Source: Nocardiopsis potens DSM 45234
Lineage (GTDB): Bacteria; Actinomycetota; Actinomycetes; Streptosporangiales; Streptosporangiaceae
Length of the DNA stretch: 64,000 nucleotides
Direction of reading: 5' to 3'
Assembly (NCBI RefSeq): GCF_000341105.1
Contig: NZ_ANBB01000046.1
Location: 62,001 to 126,000, forward strand
Below are positions 5,393 to 60,845 of this stretch, piece after piece. The position numbers and the translations under genes are program-made. The stretch's first letter is position 1. Each line of letters begins with the position of its first letter. The notes under the pieces were generated by a model. That model did not search any database. It was not told the origin of the DNA and saw only the letters and a list, made by a program, of their open reading frames with translations.

Positions 5393-6145
5393 TCAGTCGC
5401 CGTTCGGGACCTCCATCGCGGCGAAGCGGGCGCCGAACGGGTCGGCGATCAGGCTCCAGCGGCCGTAGCCGGAGGCGCCGGCCGGGCGGAGCACCGCGCC
5501 GCCGTTCTCGACCGCGCGGTCCGCGGTCCGGTCGGCGTCCTGCACCACCAGGTAGCACAGCCAGGCGCCGCGGCCGGAGGCGGTGCGCTCGCCGGCGCCC
5601 GCGTAGACGCCGCACACCGGGGAGCCGCCGCTGTACAGCGTCACGTACTCCGCGTCGGCGATCCGCTCGGCCTCGTAGCCGAACAGCCGGACCAGGAAGT
5701 CCGCGGTGGCCGGCACGTCGGTGCTGGTCGCCTCGGCCCAGATCGGGGCGCCGGGGACGCCGAACGCCTCGGCGCCGCCCAGCGAGCCGCGCAGCCACAG
5801 CGCGAACTCGGTGCCGGCCGGGTCCCGCACCACGGCGCGGGTGCCCAGCCCGGCGACGTCCTCCGGGCCGGAGAGCACCCGGCCGCCCAGCCGGGCGGCG
5901 GCCTCCAGGGAGCGGTCCAGGTCCGGGGCGGCCAGGTGCGCGGTCCAGTAGGCCGGCCCGGACGGGTCCGCGGCGGCGCTCAGCCCGGCGACCCGGTCCC
6001 CGTCCAGCAGCGCGGTGGTGTAGGGGCCGGTGTCGAACTCCCAGCCGAGCAGCTCCCCGTAGAACCCGGCGGCGCGGCCGACGTCGGGGACCGTCAGGTC
6101 CAGCCAGGCGGGCGCCCCGGAGGGGTACTCCACGGAAGTCGTCAT
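5393..6145 (-). CDS. VOC family protein, two tandem glyoxalase-fold domains
   Basis: A 250-residue cytosolic protein made of two vicinal-oxygen-chelate modules. The first runs from about 11 to 120 (PAWLDLTVPDVGRAAGFYGELLGWEF ... VRDPAGTEFALW). The second runs from about 135 to 250 (PIWAEATSTDVPATADFLVRLFGYE ... IADPFGARFAAMEV). Each has the beta-alpha-beta-beta-beta layout with the late DPxGxxFA strand. Such proteins are often annotated glyoxalase/bleomycin resistance/hydroxylase; metal ligands vary and the reaction cannot be assigned. I chose the ATG at 6145 (MTTSVEYP), since the upstream in-frame start at 6178 has no support. It precedes nothing obvious in the same strand and may be monocistronic. 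Confidence 0.88.
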   Translation of the reverse strand: MTTSVEYPSGAPAWLDLTVPDVGRAAGFYGELLGWEFDTGPYTTALLDGDRVAGLSAAADPSGPAYWTAHLAAPDLDRSLEAAARLGGRVLSGPEDVAGLGTRAVVRDPAGTEFALWLRGSLGGAEAFGVPGAPIWAEATSTDVPATADFLVRLFGYEAERIADAEYVTLYSGGSPVCGVYAGAGERTASGRGAWLCYLVVQDADRTADRAVENGGAVLRPAGASGYGRWSLIADPFGARFAAMEVPNGD

Positions 6146-6203
6146 GGCGCGATTGTCCCTGAGCAGGGGGCGCACCACCCCGGAAAACCGGGTAAAGGGG
6201 ACG

Positions 6204-7199
6204 TCAAGCGTCCATCGGACTTCTCCGGGCGCTCTCCCCGATTCCGCCGGTCCCGGCCCCCGCCGCCCCGGCGACCAGCTCCAGGGCCCGTCCGAGCAGG
6301 TCCGGGTCGTCGTAGCGGAGCCAGCGCACCCGCGGGTCGCGGCGGAACCAGGACTCCTGGCGGCGGGCGAACCGGCGGGTGGCGCGGACGGTCTCCTCGC
6401 GGGCCTCCTCCTCGCCGCACTCGCCGGCCAGGAAGCGCAGCACCTGGGCGTAGCCGAGGGCCCGGGGGGCGGTGCGCCCCTCGGCCAGGCCGTGCCGGGA
6501 CAGCTCGCGGACCTCCTCGACCAGCCCGGCCTCCCACATCAGGTCGACCCGCCGGGCGATGCGCTCGTCCAGCTCGGGCCGGGGGACCTCCAGGCCGATC
6601 TGCACGGCCGGGTAGCGGGACTCGTGCCGGGGCAGGGTCGCGGTGAACGGGCGGCCGGTCAGCTCGATCACCTCCAGCGCGCGGACGATGCGCCGCCCGT
6701 TGCTCGGCAGGATCGCCTCCGCCGCGGCCGGGTCCGACTCGGCCAGCCGGGCGTGCAGGGCGGCCGGGCCGCGCTCGGCGAGCTCGCCCTCCAGCCGGGC
6801 GCGGACCGCCGGGTCGGTGCCGGGGAACTCCAGCTCGTCCAGGACCGCGCGGACGTACAGGCCCGACCCGCCCACCAGGACCGGAACGGTCCCGGCGGCG
6901 AGCATCCCGTCGACCAGGCCGCGGGCCATCCGCTGGTAGCGCGCCACGTCGGCCGGCTCGGTGACGTCCCAGACGTCCAGCAGGCGGTGCGGGACGCCGC
7001 GGCGCTCGTCCTCGGGCAGCTTGGCGGTGCCGATGTCCATGCCGCGGTACAGCTGCATGGAGTCGGTGTTGACGATCTCGGCCGGCCGCAGGCTCAGCGC
7101 GAGGCCGACGGCGAGGTCGGACTTGCCGGCCGCCGTCGGGCCGACCACCGAGACCACGACGCCTCTCCCCGGTTCCGGGTGTGTTCTACCGCTGCCCAT
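6204..7199 (-). CDS. miaA: tRNA dimethylallyltransferase MiaA
   Basis: Transfers the dimethylallyl group from DMAPP to A37 of tRNAs, making the substrate of MiaB. The 331-residue protein has the P-loop GPTAAGKS (about 20-27), the [17 protein letters not shown] substrate loop (44-60), and the GGSGLYVRA motif (109-117). Downstream are [16 protein letters not shown] (about 166-181) and the [14 protein letters not shown] basic segment. Length is normal. The ATG at 7199 has GGAGGG directly before it; as SD spacing is very short, translation may instead begin without a leader (CAGACT six bases upstream). The gene is divergent from dapF with less than 80 bp between the starts. Confidence 0.97.
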
Positions 7200-7263
7200 C
7201 CCTCCAGTCTGGCAGCGCCGGAGCAGTGCTCGCGGACGTGCCCCGGGTCCCGTTCGGGCGGCT

Positions 7264-7269
7264 TAGGAT
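7264..7269 (+). promoter_or_regulatory. -10 element of dapF, likely leaderless
   Basis: TAGGAT ends seven bases before the ATG at 7277, an ideal distance for transcription starting on the start codon. It decides between the ATG at 7277 and one at 7268 that overlaps this hexamer. Confidence 0.6.
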
Positions 7270-7276
7270 GAGCCGC

Positions 7277-8089
7277 ATGCGTTTCGCCAAAGGCCACGGA
7301 ACCGAGAACGATTTCGTGATTCTCCCGGACCCCGACGGTGCGCTGGACCTCAGCGCCGACCAGGTCGCGCGGCTGTGCGACCGGCGCGCCGGCATCGGCG
7401 GCGACGGGGTGCTGCGGGTCGTGCGGACCGGGGCCCTGGGGGAGCCGGTGACCGGGGGCGCCGCGGACGCCGAGTGGTTCATGGACTACCGCAACGCCGA
7501 CGGAAGCATCGCCGAGATGTGCGGCAACGGGGTGCGGGTGTTCGCCCGCTACCTGATCCATGCGGGCCTGGCCGGCGCGGGGCCGATCACCGTCGGCACC
7601 CGGGCCGGGGCGCGCCGGGTCGAGGTGGAGGCCGACGGCGACATCACCGTCGACATGGGCCTCCCCGAGGTGCTCGGCGAGGGCGCCGCCCGGCTGGCCG
7701 GCGGCGAGGAGGTGCGCGGGATGCGCATCTCGGTGGGCAACCCGCACCTGGCCTGCGTGCTGAACCGGCCGGTGGCCGGGTTCGACCTGAGCGCGGCGCC
7801 CGAGCTGGACCCGGCGGAGTTCCCCGAGGGCGGCAACGTCGAGGTGGTCGCCGAGACCGGCCCGGGCGCCCTGGACATGCGGGTCTACGAGCGCGGCTCC
7901 GGGGAGACCCGCTCCTGCGGCACCGGCATCGTCGCGGCGGCGGTCGCCGCCACCGGCGCCGCCGGGACCCCGGCCACCTGGAGGGTCCGGGTGCCCGGTG
8001 GCGAGTGCACGGTCTTCCTGGACGCCCGCGGCGCCCGGCTGCGCGGCCCGGCCGTGATCGTGGCCGAGGGCGAGGTCCAACCCGGGTGA
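7277..8089 (+). CDS. dapF: diaminopimelate epimerase DapF
   Basis: Cofactor-independent racemase that turns LL- into meso-diaminopimelate for lysine and peptidoglycan synthesis. The 270-residue protein starts MRFAKGHGTENDFVILPD. It has the two catalytic cysteine regions: ADGSIAEMCGNGVRVFARY (first Cys, about residue 80) and ERGSGETRSCGTGIVAAA (second Cys, about 215). These are the DapF signature boxes. The start at 7277 is preferred because the family starts at this methionine and TAGGAT sits seven bases upstream. Its stop overlaps the GTG start of the next gene by four bases (GTGA), so the downstream permease is translationally coupled. Confidence 0.97.
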   Translation: MRFAKGHGTENDFVILPDPDGALDLSADQVARLCDRRAGIGGDGVLRVVRTGALGEPVTGGAADAEWFMDYRNADGSIAEMCGNGVRVFARYLIHAGLAGAGPITVGTRAGARRVEVEADGDITVDMGLPEVLGEGAARLAGGEEVRGMRISVGNPHLACVLNRPVAGFDLSAAPELDPAEFPEGGNVEVVAETGPGALDMRVYERGSGETRSCGTGIVAAAVAATGAAGTPATWRVRVPGGECTVFLDARGARLRGPAVIVAEGEVQPG

Positions 8090-10902: not shown

Positions 10903-11076
10903 CCCGCCCTTCCCTCCCCCTCCCAGACCCCTTCCCTGATCCCCTCCCCGAGGATCTCGGCGCCGCGGCCCTGCCAGAGCGCTCGTCGTCAAGCGGCCGT
11001 TGCGGCAAGTGGGCCGTTGCAGCGAGGAAACCGAGGAACTCGGGGGAGGGACGAGGAACGGGAGGCGCCCCTACCG
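10903..11076. other. intergenic, pyrimidine-rich tract
   Basis: Directly after the binding-protein stop is a run of about 50 mostly C/T bases, then a short direct repeat around GGCCGTTGC (near 10993-11016). No gene or clear terminator hairpin is seen. The region leads into repeat element A. Confidence 0.5.
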
Positions 11077-11540
11077 GGCGCGGCGCCTCACGTGGCCGGG
11101 GCCCAAGCGGGCAGCGACGGCGGCAGTAGGGGGACCGGCTGGTCGGTCGGGTGCGGCGCCCCGCGGAGCGAGGGTTCAGGCGGGCAGCGACGGCGGGGGC
11201 AGGGGCGGGGCGGGCGCCTCGCCCGGGCGCGGCGCCTCACGGAGCGAGGGTTCAGGCGGGCGGCGACGGCGGCAGTAGGGGGACCGGCTGGTCGGTCGGG
11301 CGCGGCGCCCCGCGGAGCGAGGGTTCAAGCGGGCGGCGACGGCGGCGGTAGGGGCGGGGCGGGCGCCTCGCCCGGGCGCGGCGCCTCGCGGAGCGAGGGT
11401 TCAGGCGGGCGGCGACGGCGGCAGTAGGGGGACCGGCCGGTCGGTCGGGTGCGGCGCCCCGCAGAGCGAAGGTCAAGACGGGCAGCGAGGGTGGGAGTCG
11501 GGCGGGGCGGCGCCGGTGAAGGGGGTGGGCCGCTCGCCCG
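11077..11540 (+). repeat. element A, left repeat array
   Basis: Six tandem units of about 73-76 bp, the last longer. Each begins GCGGCGCC, followed by a GGAGCGAGGGTTCA segment and GGCGACGGCGGCAGTAGGGG. Two unit types alternate. One ends with GACCGGCTGGTCGGTCGG (itself partly palindromic), the other with GGGCGGGCGCCTCGCCCGG, giving a higher-order period near 148 bp. The same family, inverted, forms the right array. No coding signal is found. Confidence 0.88.
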
Positions 11541-12060
11541 GACCCACCAGGGAGCCTTATCCCTGTATGCCTGGTTCGCGGCGGGGATCGGGCGCAGGCG
11601 GGGGCGCCTTGCGCACCGCGAGAGCACCCCGATTACATCTACCAGCGAGTAGTAAGCCCCCAGGTCCCCACCGCCCCCTCGCCGATCACCCAGAGTGGCC
11701 GAGGCGGGTCCTCTCTGCAGGGCAAAAGCGACATCTCGCCCCCACCCCTGCTCTTCCCGGGTTCCGGCCCCCTGCATGCCGGTCTTCCGGGCGCCTCGAA
11801 CCCCTCACCACCAGGCCGATCAAGGCGATTCGGGCCTCCCGGGGGCCGTTCCGGCCCGGGATGCGCGCCCGGGAATCACCGGAGTGCTCTCGCGGTGCGC
11901 AGGGCACCCCTCCCCGCCATCACCCTGCGTATTCGCCCAGTTCAGAGAGGGGTAGCGGTTTCAGAGGCGGCCGGCTCCGACGCCCGGGCGACGCGGGAAC
12001 GGCGAACCCGCCGCCCCGGCCCGCCCCGACCACTCCCTCCCTGCTCTGCCGCGCCCGACC
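11541..12060. repeat. element A, conserved core
   Basis: About 520 bp shared with 59721-60240. It contains a 41-base stretch (11623-11663) identical in both copies. Within it, 11633-11655 is a dyad of the form TTAC...GTAA with inner CT/AG pairs, like a dimer-binding operator. A perfect 17-bp inverted repeat (11611-11627 and 11884-11900, GTGCTCTCGCGGTGCGC on the + strand at the right arm) brackets 256 bp. Alignment with copy B over about 357 bp shows no gaps and about 46 substitutions spread over all codon positions, so a protein-coding role is unlikely. Confidence 0.85.
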
Positions 12061-12520
12061 GACCAGCCGGTCCCCACCCGCCGCCTGCTTGAACCCCGGC
12101 CCCGTGGGGCACTGCGCCGGACCGACCGCCTCCGCCCCGCCCCTGCCGCTGCCGTCGCCGCCAGCCTGAACCCCAGCCCCGCGGGGCGCCGCACCGGACC
12201 GACCGGCCGGTCCCCGCTGCTGCCCTCGCCGCCTGCTTGAACCCCCGCCCTGTGGGGCGCCGCGCCCGGCTGGGGCGCCCGACCCTGCCCCTACCGCTGC
12301 CGTCGCCGCTGGCCTGAACCCCGGCCCCGTGGGGCGCCGCGCCCGACCGACCGGCCGGTCCCCGCTGCCGCCGTCGCTGCCGGCTTTAACCCTCGCCCCG
12401 TGGGGTACCGCGCTCGGGCGCCCCCTCGCCCCGTCCCTGCCGGTGCCGTCGCCGCCCGTCTTGACCTTCGCTCCGCGGGGCGCCGCGCCCGACCGATCGG
12501 CTGGTCCTCTTCTGTCCTCT
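12045..12520 (-). repeat. element A, right repeat array (inverted)
   Basis: About six to seven units of the same ~65-76 bp family as the left array, read on the opposite strand. On the + strand each unit shows GCCGTCGCCGCC, then a TTGAACCCC or TTGACC segment. A GCCCCGTGGGGC short hairpin and CGACCGACCGGCCGGTCC follow. The array ends near 12520, shortly before the half palindrome at 12557. Confidence 0.85.
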
Positions 12521-12556
12521 GGTGGGCGGTGTTGCAACAGGAACTGGAGACCACCC

Positions 12557-12588
12557 GCTCTGATGGGGCCGCAACGTCAAGATCATCG
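12557..12588 (+). repeat. half copy of palindromic repeat
   Basis: GCTCTGA followed by CGCAACGTCAAGATCATCG matches one arm of the 62-bp palindrome at 55049-55110. The other arm is absent, so it cannot fold into the full hairpin. Confidence 0.75.
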
Positions 12589-55039: not shown

Positions 55040-55048
55040 CCCCAGGGC

Positions 55049-55110
55049 GATGATCTTGACGTTGCGGGGGTAACAGAGCGCTCTGACACCCCCGCAACGT
55101 CAAGATCATC
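55049..55110. repeat. 62-bp near-perfect palindrome, era / iclR terminator
   Basis: Each 31-base arm starts GATGATCTTGACG, continues with TTGCGGGGGT and ends at the centre with CAGAGC. The two arms differ at two of 31 pairs. It lies between the convergent era and IclR genes and could act as a bidirectional terminator. A single arm recurs at 12557-12588, so this is a dispersed repeat rather than an ordinary terminator. Confidence 0.85.
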
Positions 55111-55170
55111 GGGGGCGGGACCGGTGCGGTCCCCCTCCCGCGCCGGGGCGGTGCGGGAGGGGAGCGGCGG

Positions 55171-59199: not shown

Positions 59200-59720
59200 G
59201 CCGGGCGCGGCGTCTCGCGGGGCGGGGGTCCAAGCGGGCGGCGAGGGCGGGAGGGGGACCGGCTGCTCGGGCGCGGCGTCTCGCGGAGCGAAGGTCAAGA
59301 CGGGCGGCGACGGCAGTGGTAGGGGCGGGGCCGGGCGTCCTAGCCGGGCGCGGCGCCTCACGGGGCGGGGGTTCAAACCGGCGGCGAGGGCGGGAGGGGG
59401 GACCGGCCGGTCGGTCGGGTACAGCCCCCCACGGGGCGAAGGTCAAAACGGGCAGCGACGGCGAAGGTAGGGCTGGGGCGGTGGCGGTCGCCCGGGCGCG
59501 GCGCTCCACGTAGCGGGGGTTCAAACCGGCGGCGAAGGCGGCGGTGGGGACCGGCTGGTCGGTCGGGCGCGGCGCCTCGCGGAGCGGAGGTACAAGCCGG
59601 CGGCGACGGCAGCGGTAGGGGAGGGGTGCAGGCGTCGCCCGGGCGCGCACCCCATGGGGCCGGGGTTCAAGCAGGCGGCGAAGGCGGGAGCGGAGTGGGC
59701 GCCGCGTTCACCGGCCCGGC
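59200..59720 (+). repeat. element B, left repeat array
   Basis: About seven tandem units of the same family as in element A, each starting GCGCGGCG and containing GGTTCAAACCGG or GGTCAAGACGGG and a GGCGACGGC segment. Endings GACCGGCTGGTCGGTCGG and GTCGCCCGG alternate. The unit sequences differ from each other more than in element A. Confidence 0.87.
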
Positions 59721-60240
59721 CCGCACCCAGCAGGGCGGCCTTATCCCCTATGCCCGGTTTGCGGCGGGGATCGGGCGGGGGCGGGAGTCCCCTGCGCACC
59801 CCCGCAGCACCCCGATTACATCTACCAGCGAGTAGTAAGCCCCCAGACCCCCATCGCCCCCTCGCCGATCACCCAGAGTGGCCAAGGCGGGCCCTCTCTG
59901 CAGGGCAAATCCGACATCTCACCCCCGCGCCATCCCTCCCCGGGTTCCGGCCCCCTGCCTTGCGGCCTTGCGGGCGGCTCGAACCCCCGAACACCGGCCC
60001 GGTCAGGGCGATTCGGGGCTTCCGGGGGCCGATCCGGGCCGGGATGCGCGCCCGGGAATCACCGGGGTGCTCTCGCGGTGCGCAGGGCGCACCACCCCGC
60101 CATCACCCTACGTATTCGCTCAGGTCAGAGAGGTGCAGCGGTTTCAGGGGCGGCCGGCCCCGGCGCCCGGGCGACACGGAAACGGCGAACCTGCCGCCCC
60201 CTACCCTCCCCGGCCGCCCCTCCCTGCTCTGCCGCACCCG
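59721..60240. repeat. element B, conserved core
   Basis: About 520 bp matching 11541-12060. The 41-base identical block is at 59806-59846, with the TTAC...GTAA dyad at 59816-59838. The right arm of the internal inverted repeat (GTGCTCTCGCGGTGCGC) is kept exactly, at about 60069-60085. The left arm (about 59795-59811) has several changes. No reading frame shows coding constraint relative to copy A. Confidence 0.85.
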
Positions 60241-60845
60241 ACCGACCGGCCGGCCGGTGCCCCTCCCCTCCCCGCCGTCGCCGCCGGTCTGAAGCTTCGC
60301 CCCGTGGGGCGCCGCGCTTGACCGACTGGCCGGTTCCCCTCCCTGCTCTCGCCGCCTGCTTGTACCCCCGCCCCGTGGGACGCCGCGCCCGGGTGACCAC
60401 CTGCGCCCCGGCCCTACCTTCGCCGTCGCTGCCCGCTTGTACCCCCGCCCCGTGGGGCGCCGCACCAGACCGACTGGCCGGCACGCCCTCCCGCCCTCGC
60501 CGCTGGTCTGAATCCCTGCCCCGCGAGACGCCGCGCCCGGGCGACCGCCTCCGCCCCGCCCCTTCCTTGGCCGTCGCCGCCTGCTTGGACCTTCGCTCTG
60601 CGGGGCGCCGCACCGGACCGACCGGCCGGTCCCCACCGCCGCCTTCGCCGCCTGCTTGAGCCCCCGCCCCGTGGGGCGCCGCGCCCGGCTGGGGCGCCTG
60701 GCCCTGTTCCTGCCGCTGCCGTCGCCGCCTGCTTGAACCGCCACCCCGTGGGGCGCCACGCCCGAGCGACTGGCTGGTACCCCCCTTCCTGCCCTCGCCG
60801 CCTGATCGGAGCTCGGCCCTGTGGGGTGCCGCGTTCGGGCGTGGG
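60235..60845 (-). repeat. element B, right repeat array (inverted)
   Basis: About eight to nine units in inverted orientation relative to the left array. On the + strand each shows CGCCGCCTGCTTG or similar, a CGCCCCGTGGGGCG short hairpin, and GACCGACTGGCCGG or a GGGGCGCCTGGCC variant. It is longer than the right array of element A. Confidence 0.85.

What the first reader, a model, noticed from the sequence alone, without database searches (positions are those of the whole stretch)
11077..12520. Composite non-coding element: conserved core flanked by inverted repeat arrays
A core of about 520 bp is flanked by six units of a ~73-76 bp repeat on the left and by the same repeat family inverted on the right. 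Two unit types alternate. The pattern is symmetric at three scales: unit hairpins, opposed arrays, and a perfect 17-bp inverted repeat within the core. I know of no described actinobacterial element with this plan. Possible roles are a binding platform for a nucleoid or partition protein, a bidirectional transcription barrier, or a source of structured RNA.
Basis: partly seen in the sequence, partly recalled or inferred. Interest (0 to 1): 0.78.

Follow-up and report, generated by a model that had tools for sequence, protein, structure and literature searches.

The report
Foldback-like interspersed repeat, ~120 copies
The feature is one of at least 123 copies of a 1-2 kb non-coding repeat built like a folded-back palindrome; it has jumped between genes in this actinomycete and its nearest relative, and its copies stay alike within each genome even at sites older than the species split, a plan familiar from animal 'foldback' transposons rather than from bacteria.

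Summary
In detail: an array of six ~73/76-bp units, a core with an 18-bp perfect inverted repeat, and the same array inverted. The element is longer than described (about 10949-12588): each end carries a unique module (X or Y) and half of a ~62-bp palindrome that also occurs alone many times in the genome.

It is one of 123 core copies in this 6.9-Mb draft genome, with at least 52 in one congener (G002) and none in four others. Every complete copy has inward-facing arrays of 2-11 units. All 12 tested copies with intact ends are missing from the G002 orthologous site, so the unit has moved. At least 14 G002 copies share their intergenic site with a G000 copy, yet those pairs are no more alike than random cross-genome pairs, and old and young G000 copies are equally near the G000 consensus. 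That is concerted evolution.

Best reading: a non-autonomous foldback-type mobile repeat, moved by an unidentified enzyme, whose core and arrays are afterwards homogenised or selected. Spacing in G002 is random, there is no replication-strand bias, and unit hairpins are not beyond chance. A host function (DNA platform, RNA) remains open. No mobilising gene, expression data or target-site duplication was found.

The parts
10949..12588 (+). whole composite element, copy 1
   Evidence: X/Y end modules found by nhmmer and ~62-bp palindrome halves at both ends
10950..10981 (+). left outer end: diverged half of the 62-bp palindrome family (GATGATCTTGACGTTGCGG...)
   Evidence: row 'window' (24 of 32 positions match the right half)
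10982..11074 (+). end module X (CTYGTCGTCAAG..GGCCGTTGCA[GA]CGAGGAAC..CTCGGGGGAGGG)
   Evidence: X hit 56 bits
11075..11479 (+). left array, six units of alternating 73 and 76 bp, pointing at the core
11480..12000 (+). core; best conserved from about 11550 to 11990
   Evidence: 73 G000 copies aligned; 123 copies counted by 26-mer
11601..11631 (+). left arm of inner stem (18-bp perfect part 11610-11627)
   Evidence: covariation
11631..11656 (+). near-invariant block GATTACATCTACCAGCGAGTAGTAAG
   Evidence: 123 matches with at most 3 mismatches, reversed control 0
11880..11910 (+). right arm of inner stem (18-bp perfect part 11884-11901)
12056..12507 (-). right array, same unit family inverted, six units
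12508..12555 (-). end module Y (GGTGGTYTCCAG..GTTGCAACACCGC..CACCAGAGGACAG)
   Evidence: Y hit 89 bits
12556..12587 (-). right outer end: half of the 62-bp palindrome (GATGATCTTGACGTTGCGGCC, 0 mismatches)
   Evidence: G000:C46:74567-74587
59202..60833 (+). copy 2 of the element in the window (7 + 8 units, core 59719-60183); outer ends not recognisable; same intergenic site occupied in G002 (L116)
55049..55110 (.). solo 62-bp palindrome carrying the same ends as the composite
   Evidence: DNA fold z -12.9

Best explanation
It is a copy of a non-autonomous, foldback-type interspersed element. Shown: the plan is [palindrome half - X or Y - unit array > - core with its own inner stem - < unit array - Y or X - palindrome half]. 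Shown: it has over 100 copies, sits between genes, and many copies lie where the sister species has no element. Inferred: an enzyme acting in trans recognises the outer ends, which are shared with solo ~62-bp hairpins, and moved whole units into intergenic DNA. Shown: at sites occupied in both species the core follows the genome it sits in, not the site. Inferred: after insertion, recombination between copies (gene conversion) and/or selection keeps core and arrays alike, while the outer ends decay.
For: Copy number 123. Identical inward-facing plan in all complete copies of two species. End modules X/Y plus palindrome halves on about 28 of ~80 G000 copies. 12 of 12 tested G000 copies with intact ends have a G002 orthologous site without core or units, with alignable gene flanks mostly 85-96% identical; two of these sites are also empty in the four other congeners (one only partly covered in G004). 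The same outer end occurs as solo palindromes: 251 half-matches in G000, 140 in G002, 1-3 loose ones in the others. Concerted evolution: at least 14 shared sites with ortholog identity 0.61-0.82 and rank among cross-genome pairs near random, G000 paralogs 0.82 on average; all 78 full G000 cores in one clade with two G002 cores inside; old versus young copies 0.879 versus 0.877 identity to consensus, P 0.59. Strong avoidance of divergent (promoter) intergenic regions: 50 convergent, 55 tandem, 5 divergent versus background 128/565/181.
Against: No transposase or other enzyme with matching ends was found; no Y1/RAYT transposase in G000 or G002; inward-facing palindrome pairs 3-4 kb apart in G002 enclose ordinary genes. 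No target-site duplication at solo palindromes, and none seen by eye at composite ends. The empty-site test used copies chosen for intact ends. Old copies that keep core and arrays could mean host function rather than passive homogenisation.
Confidence: 0.6

Rival explanations
1. Host-serving DNA platform: arrays and core bind a nucleoid-associated, partition or structural-maintenance protein at many dispersed sites, and selection keeps the copies alike.
For: Very uneven column conservation in the core (135 of 517 columns nearly invariant, 82 with over 30% variants). Core and arrays persist at sites older than the G000/G002 split while intergenic DNA between the species is mostly unalignable. 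Inner stem kept by paired changes.
Against: Absent from four of five congeners. Unit number varies from 2 to 11. Spacing in near-complete G002 is random (P 0.11; 4 pairs under 10 kb against 3.5 expected). No leading/lagging bias (20 vs 16 by hand, terminus assumed opposite dnaA).
Confidence: 0.2
2. Structured non-coding RNA gene family: the core is transcribed and folds through its inner stem.
For: Inner stem 84.1% paired; 70 cells with changes on both sides against 36 +/- 5 in shuffles, 0 of 500 reach it; slid controls far lower. Conserved CTAC-CAGCGA-GTAG hairpin block.
Against: No Rfam match. G.U counts in the stem do not clearly favour a strand (71 vs 54 in G000, 28 vs 21 in G002), so a DNA-level inverted repeat explains it as well. 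No expression data.
Confidence: 0.12
3. Bidirectional transcription barrier between convergent genes.
For: Ten-fold excess of convergent over divergent neighbours (50 vs 5; Fisher odds ratio 14, P 2e-12).
Against: Half of the copies lie between tandem genes with no strand preference (31 same, 24 opposite); avoidance of promoters by an inserting element gives the same bias; where terminator-like hairpins of the neighbours were seen (L108) they lie outside the element.
Confidence: 0.08

Closest known systems
Foldback transposons (Drosophila FB, Galileo, Tetris)
   Same: Long inverted ends made of an outer domain, a tandem-repeat domain of variable unit number and an inner domain around a non-coding middle; Tetris also shares its extreme ends with a small MITE (PMC4079207), as this element shares its ends with the solo 62-bp palindromes.
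   Different: Bacterial; smaller units (73-76 bp vs ~220 bp in Tetris); outer modules X and Y differ from each other; no target-site duplication found; no transposase linked. Resemblance in plan, not shown homology.
Pneumococcal BOX elements
   Same: Bacterial, intergenic, high copy, modular with a variable tandem array of an internal module; thought to be non-autonomous and mobile (PMC3049150).
   Different: BOX has one array between boxA and boxC and is much smaller; here two opposed arrays flank a ~450-bp conserved core and the unit reaches 1.8 kb.
Bacterial MITEs
   Same: Non-coding, terminal inverted repeats, intergenic, no transposase of their own.
   Different: Larger than usual, internal opposed arrays, no target-site duplication detected, no parent IS identified.
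REP/BIME palindromes with RAYT transposases
   Same: Solo 62-bp palindromes are REP-like interspersed extragenic hairpins.
   Different: No Y1/RAYT transposase in G000 or G002; longer than the 20-40-bp REPs of PMC3733652 (abstract).

Membership tests
Foldback transposon | long inverted terminal regions containing tandem subrepeats around a middle domain | tested here: met
   inward-facing arrays of 2-11 units on both sides of the core in all complete copies
Foldback transposon | transposition with target-site duplication | tested here: inconclusive
   G002-empty sites support insertion; no TSD excess at solo palindromes; intergenic junctions not alignable
Foldback transposon | belongs to a known transposase superfamily | tested here: inconclusive
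   no autonomous relative found; inward palindrome pairs in G002 enclose normal genes
MITE | no protein-coding capacity | tested here: met
   core deletion lengths not in threes (77 of 1 nt, 28 of 3 nt); unit periods 73/76 bp
MITE | terminal inverted repeats | tested here: met
   palindrome halves at both ends
MITE | target-site duplication | tested here: inconclusive
   none detected, and by eye
MITE | ends shared with an IS in the same genome | tested here: inconclusive
   only part of the end matches could be listed and inspected
REP/BIME with RAYT | RAYT (Y1) transposase in the genome | tested here: not met
   PF01797: none in G000 and G002
BOX element | boxA-boxB(n)-boxC order with one central array | tested here: not met
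   two opposed arrays flank a core; BOX plan from PMC3049150
Known structured RNA (Rfam) | match to a family model | tested here: not met
   none at gathering threshold in the window; one sub-threshold chance-level hit

The most novel reading that the evidence does not exclude
A bacterial foldback transposon family that has been domesticated: after inserting with its hairpin ends it serves, through its inward arrays and structured core, as over a hundred dispersed protein-binding platforms (or RNA sources), held alike in sequence by gene conversion across the chromosome.
Probability: 0.2. Interest if true: 0.85.

Novelty: new variant of a known kind. Interest (0 to 1): 0.62.

Why it matters
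It would be a bacterial counterpart of foldback elements, making up roughly 2% of a genome (123 copies of about 1.3 kb, an estimate), and a natural test case for concerted evolution of dispersed repeats in bacteria: the same intergenic sites are filled in two species but the sequences follow the genome, not the site. It also points to an unidentified enzyme acting on TGATCTTG...CAAGATCA hairpins, which recur in 22 of 68 sampled genera of the family.

Tried and rejected
Regular spacing: G000 contigs looked too even (P 0.00025), but assembly breaks at the elements bias this; near-complete G002 is random, so rejected. Replication-strand bias: G002 20 leading / 16 lagging by hand, rejected. Protein coding: frames not kept. 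Known RNA: none. Plasmid, phage or viral origin: no match. RAYT/REP: no Y1 transposase in G000 or G002. Autonomous partner between inward palindrome halves in G002 (L171, L172): the sequences hold lepA, a kinase gene and other ordinary genes. The ISL3-type transposase in L111 interrupts one copy and is not a parent. Unit hairpins: not better than shuffles. Core in other genera: only scattered single 16-mer matches in 201 family genomes, 0 and 1 (chance, in a Rhodospirillaceae MAG) in genome contigs. Single palindrome halves in G046 as composites: all 15 checked are solo hairpins.

Full report
WHAT IS THERE. The window is part of contig C46 of a 6.9-Mb, 133-contig draft genome (G000). The core has an 18-bp perfect inverted repeat (11610-11627/11884-11901). 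Beyond the arrays lie two different end modules, X on the left and Y on the right, and outside each a half of a ~62-bp palindrome (GATGATCTTGACGTTGCGG...), so the whole unit runs from about 10949 to 12588. The palindrome also occurs alone, for example at window 55049-55110, where it folds with z -12.9.

COPIES. The 26-mer GATTACATCTACCAGCGAGTAGTAAG from the core has 60 + 63 matches (up to 3 mismatches) in G000, none for the reversed control. G002, a near-complete relative (contigs of 6.03 and 1.34 Mb), has at least 52 copies (counted together); G001, G003, G004 and G005 have none. In 201 genomes of the family only G000 and G002 carry more than a stray match to a 16-mer of the core. Scanning 101 loci with a unit profile, every complete copy of both species has the same plan, (unit>)n core (<unit)m, with 2-11 units per side and lengths of about 0.9-1.8 kb. 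About 28 of ~80 G000 copies examined keep a recognisable X or Y end; where both are present they are usually one of each (X-Y 8, Y-X 4, Y-Y 2, both species counted).

CONTEXT. Median distance is 125 bp to a gene end and 228 bp to a gene start. In tandem pairs the core has no preferred strand (31/24). The element thus sits between transcription units and avoids promoters.

MOBILITY. For 12 G000 copies with intact ends I located the orthologous place in G002: none has core or units, and no palindrome lies at the junctions read, while the flanking genes align, mostly at 85-96% identity. Window copy 1 is the weakest of these (only its right flank aligned, 72%). Two sites (L108, L033) are also empty in the four other congeners (G004 covers only one flank of L108). 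The twelve were chosen because their ends were intact, so they represent young copies. No target duplication was found: solo palindromes show no excess of flanking direct repeats, and the flanks of composite copies show none by eye; the intergenic junctions between species are otherwise unalignable, so the exact target cannot be read.

CONCERTED EVOLUTION. At least 14 of 42 G002 copies share their intergenic site with a G000 copy, judged by orthologous flanking proteins in the same order (doubtful pairs such as L090/L140 and L050/L122 were left out by inspection). Window copy 2 is one of them (L116). Yet the two cores at a shared site are 61-82% identical, no better than other cross-genome pairs, while G000 cores average 82% among themselves. 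In a tree all 78 full G000 cores form one group with only two G002 cores inside. G000 copies at shared (old) sites and at G002-empty (young) sites are equally close to the G000 consensus: 0.879 and 0.877, P 0.59. Neutral decay after insertion cannot give this; either recombination between copies or selection homogenises them. Independent insertion at the same 14 sites is a weaker alternative, because most other intergenic sites are free. The outer ends are not kept in the same way: of the 14 shared-site copies only two (L069, L052) keep a recognisable end. This contrast is suggestive, not tested formally.

STRUCTURE. The inner stem is supported by paired changes: 84.1% of cells paired against 79.8 +/- 0.6 in shuffles, 70 cells with changes on both sides against 36 +/- 5 (0 of 500), and slid controls far lower. 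Shuffles ignore relatedness, so the slid controls carry more weight. G.U counts do not favour either strand clearly, so this does not tell an RNA stem from a DNA inverted repeat. Unit hairpins are not better than shuffles. The core is non-coding: deletions are mostly not multiples of three. Column conservation is very uneven (135 of 517 columns nearly invariant, 82 with more than 30% variants).

NEGATIVE TESTS. Even spacing in G000 is explained by assembly breaks at the repeats and is absent in G002 (P 0.11). G002 copies split 20 leading / 16 lagging if the terminus lies opposite dnaA (count by hand). There is no Y1 (RAYT) transposase in G000 or G002, no Rfam match, no plasmid, phage or viral match.

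WHAT IT WORKS LIKE, AND MEMBERSHIP. The plan matches foldback transposons point by point; Tetris of Drosophila virilis has outer, tandem-repeat and inner domains around a non-coding middle and shares its extreme ends with a MITE (PMC4079207). Among bacteria the closest in spirit is BOX, with a variable internal array and probable past mobility (PMC3049150), but its order is different. Because no enzyme and no target duplication could be tied to it, I call it foldback-like and do not file it as a member of any named family. Nine literature searches turned up no bacterial element of this plan in the held library; most subscription papers are not held.

VERDICT. Likely a non-autonomous foldback-type mobile repeat whose core and arrays are homogenised within each genome. 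Shown: architecture, copy number, empty sites, concerted evolution. Inferred: the enzyme in trans, the conversion mechanism, and whether the host now uses the copies.

Noticed in passing
G046 (283 half-hairpin matches), G148, G088, G092, G014 and others; window 55049-55110: A class of ~60-bp palindromes with shared ends TGATCTTG...CAAGATCA but genome-specific, covarying stems occurs in 34 of 151 family genomes (22 of 68 genera), up to 123 exact copies in one genome, reversed control 0. The composite's outer ends belong to this class.
   Followed up: partly
L111 (G002:C2:720000-732000), 6130-7509: An ISL3-type transposase gene and a DinB-like gene interrupt one copy of the element between core and right array.
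   Followed up: partly
L116 10541-11020 (orthologous to window 55040-55170): Where G000 has a GATGATCTTGACG palindrome, G002 has a different hairpin with related ends (CGTTGATCTTGGAGGTATCGACC...GGTCGATACCTCCAAGATCAACG), as if one hairpin replaced another at the same site.
   Followed up: no
L088, just left of the array (about 5450-5500): Two outer ends lie head to head, CTTGGTGTTGTTGCCGTCTCGCCCC/GGGGCGAGACGGCAACAACACCAAG, directly beside a copy.
   Followed up: no
G000 contig ends (C14, C27, C48, C71, C79, C98, C99): Many contigs of the draft genome end inside these elements, so short-read assembly breaks at them and tests of spacing on the draft are biased.
   Followed up: yes
G002 cores L111 and L112: These two G002 cores fall inside the G000 clade, which may mean transfer between the species or an ancestral lineage kept in G002.
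   Followed up: no
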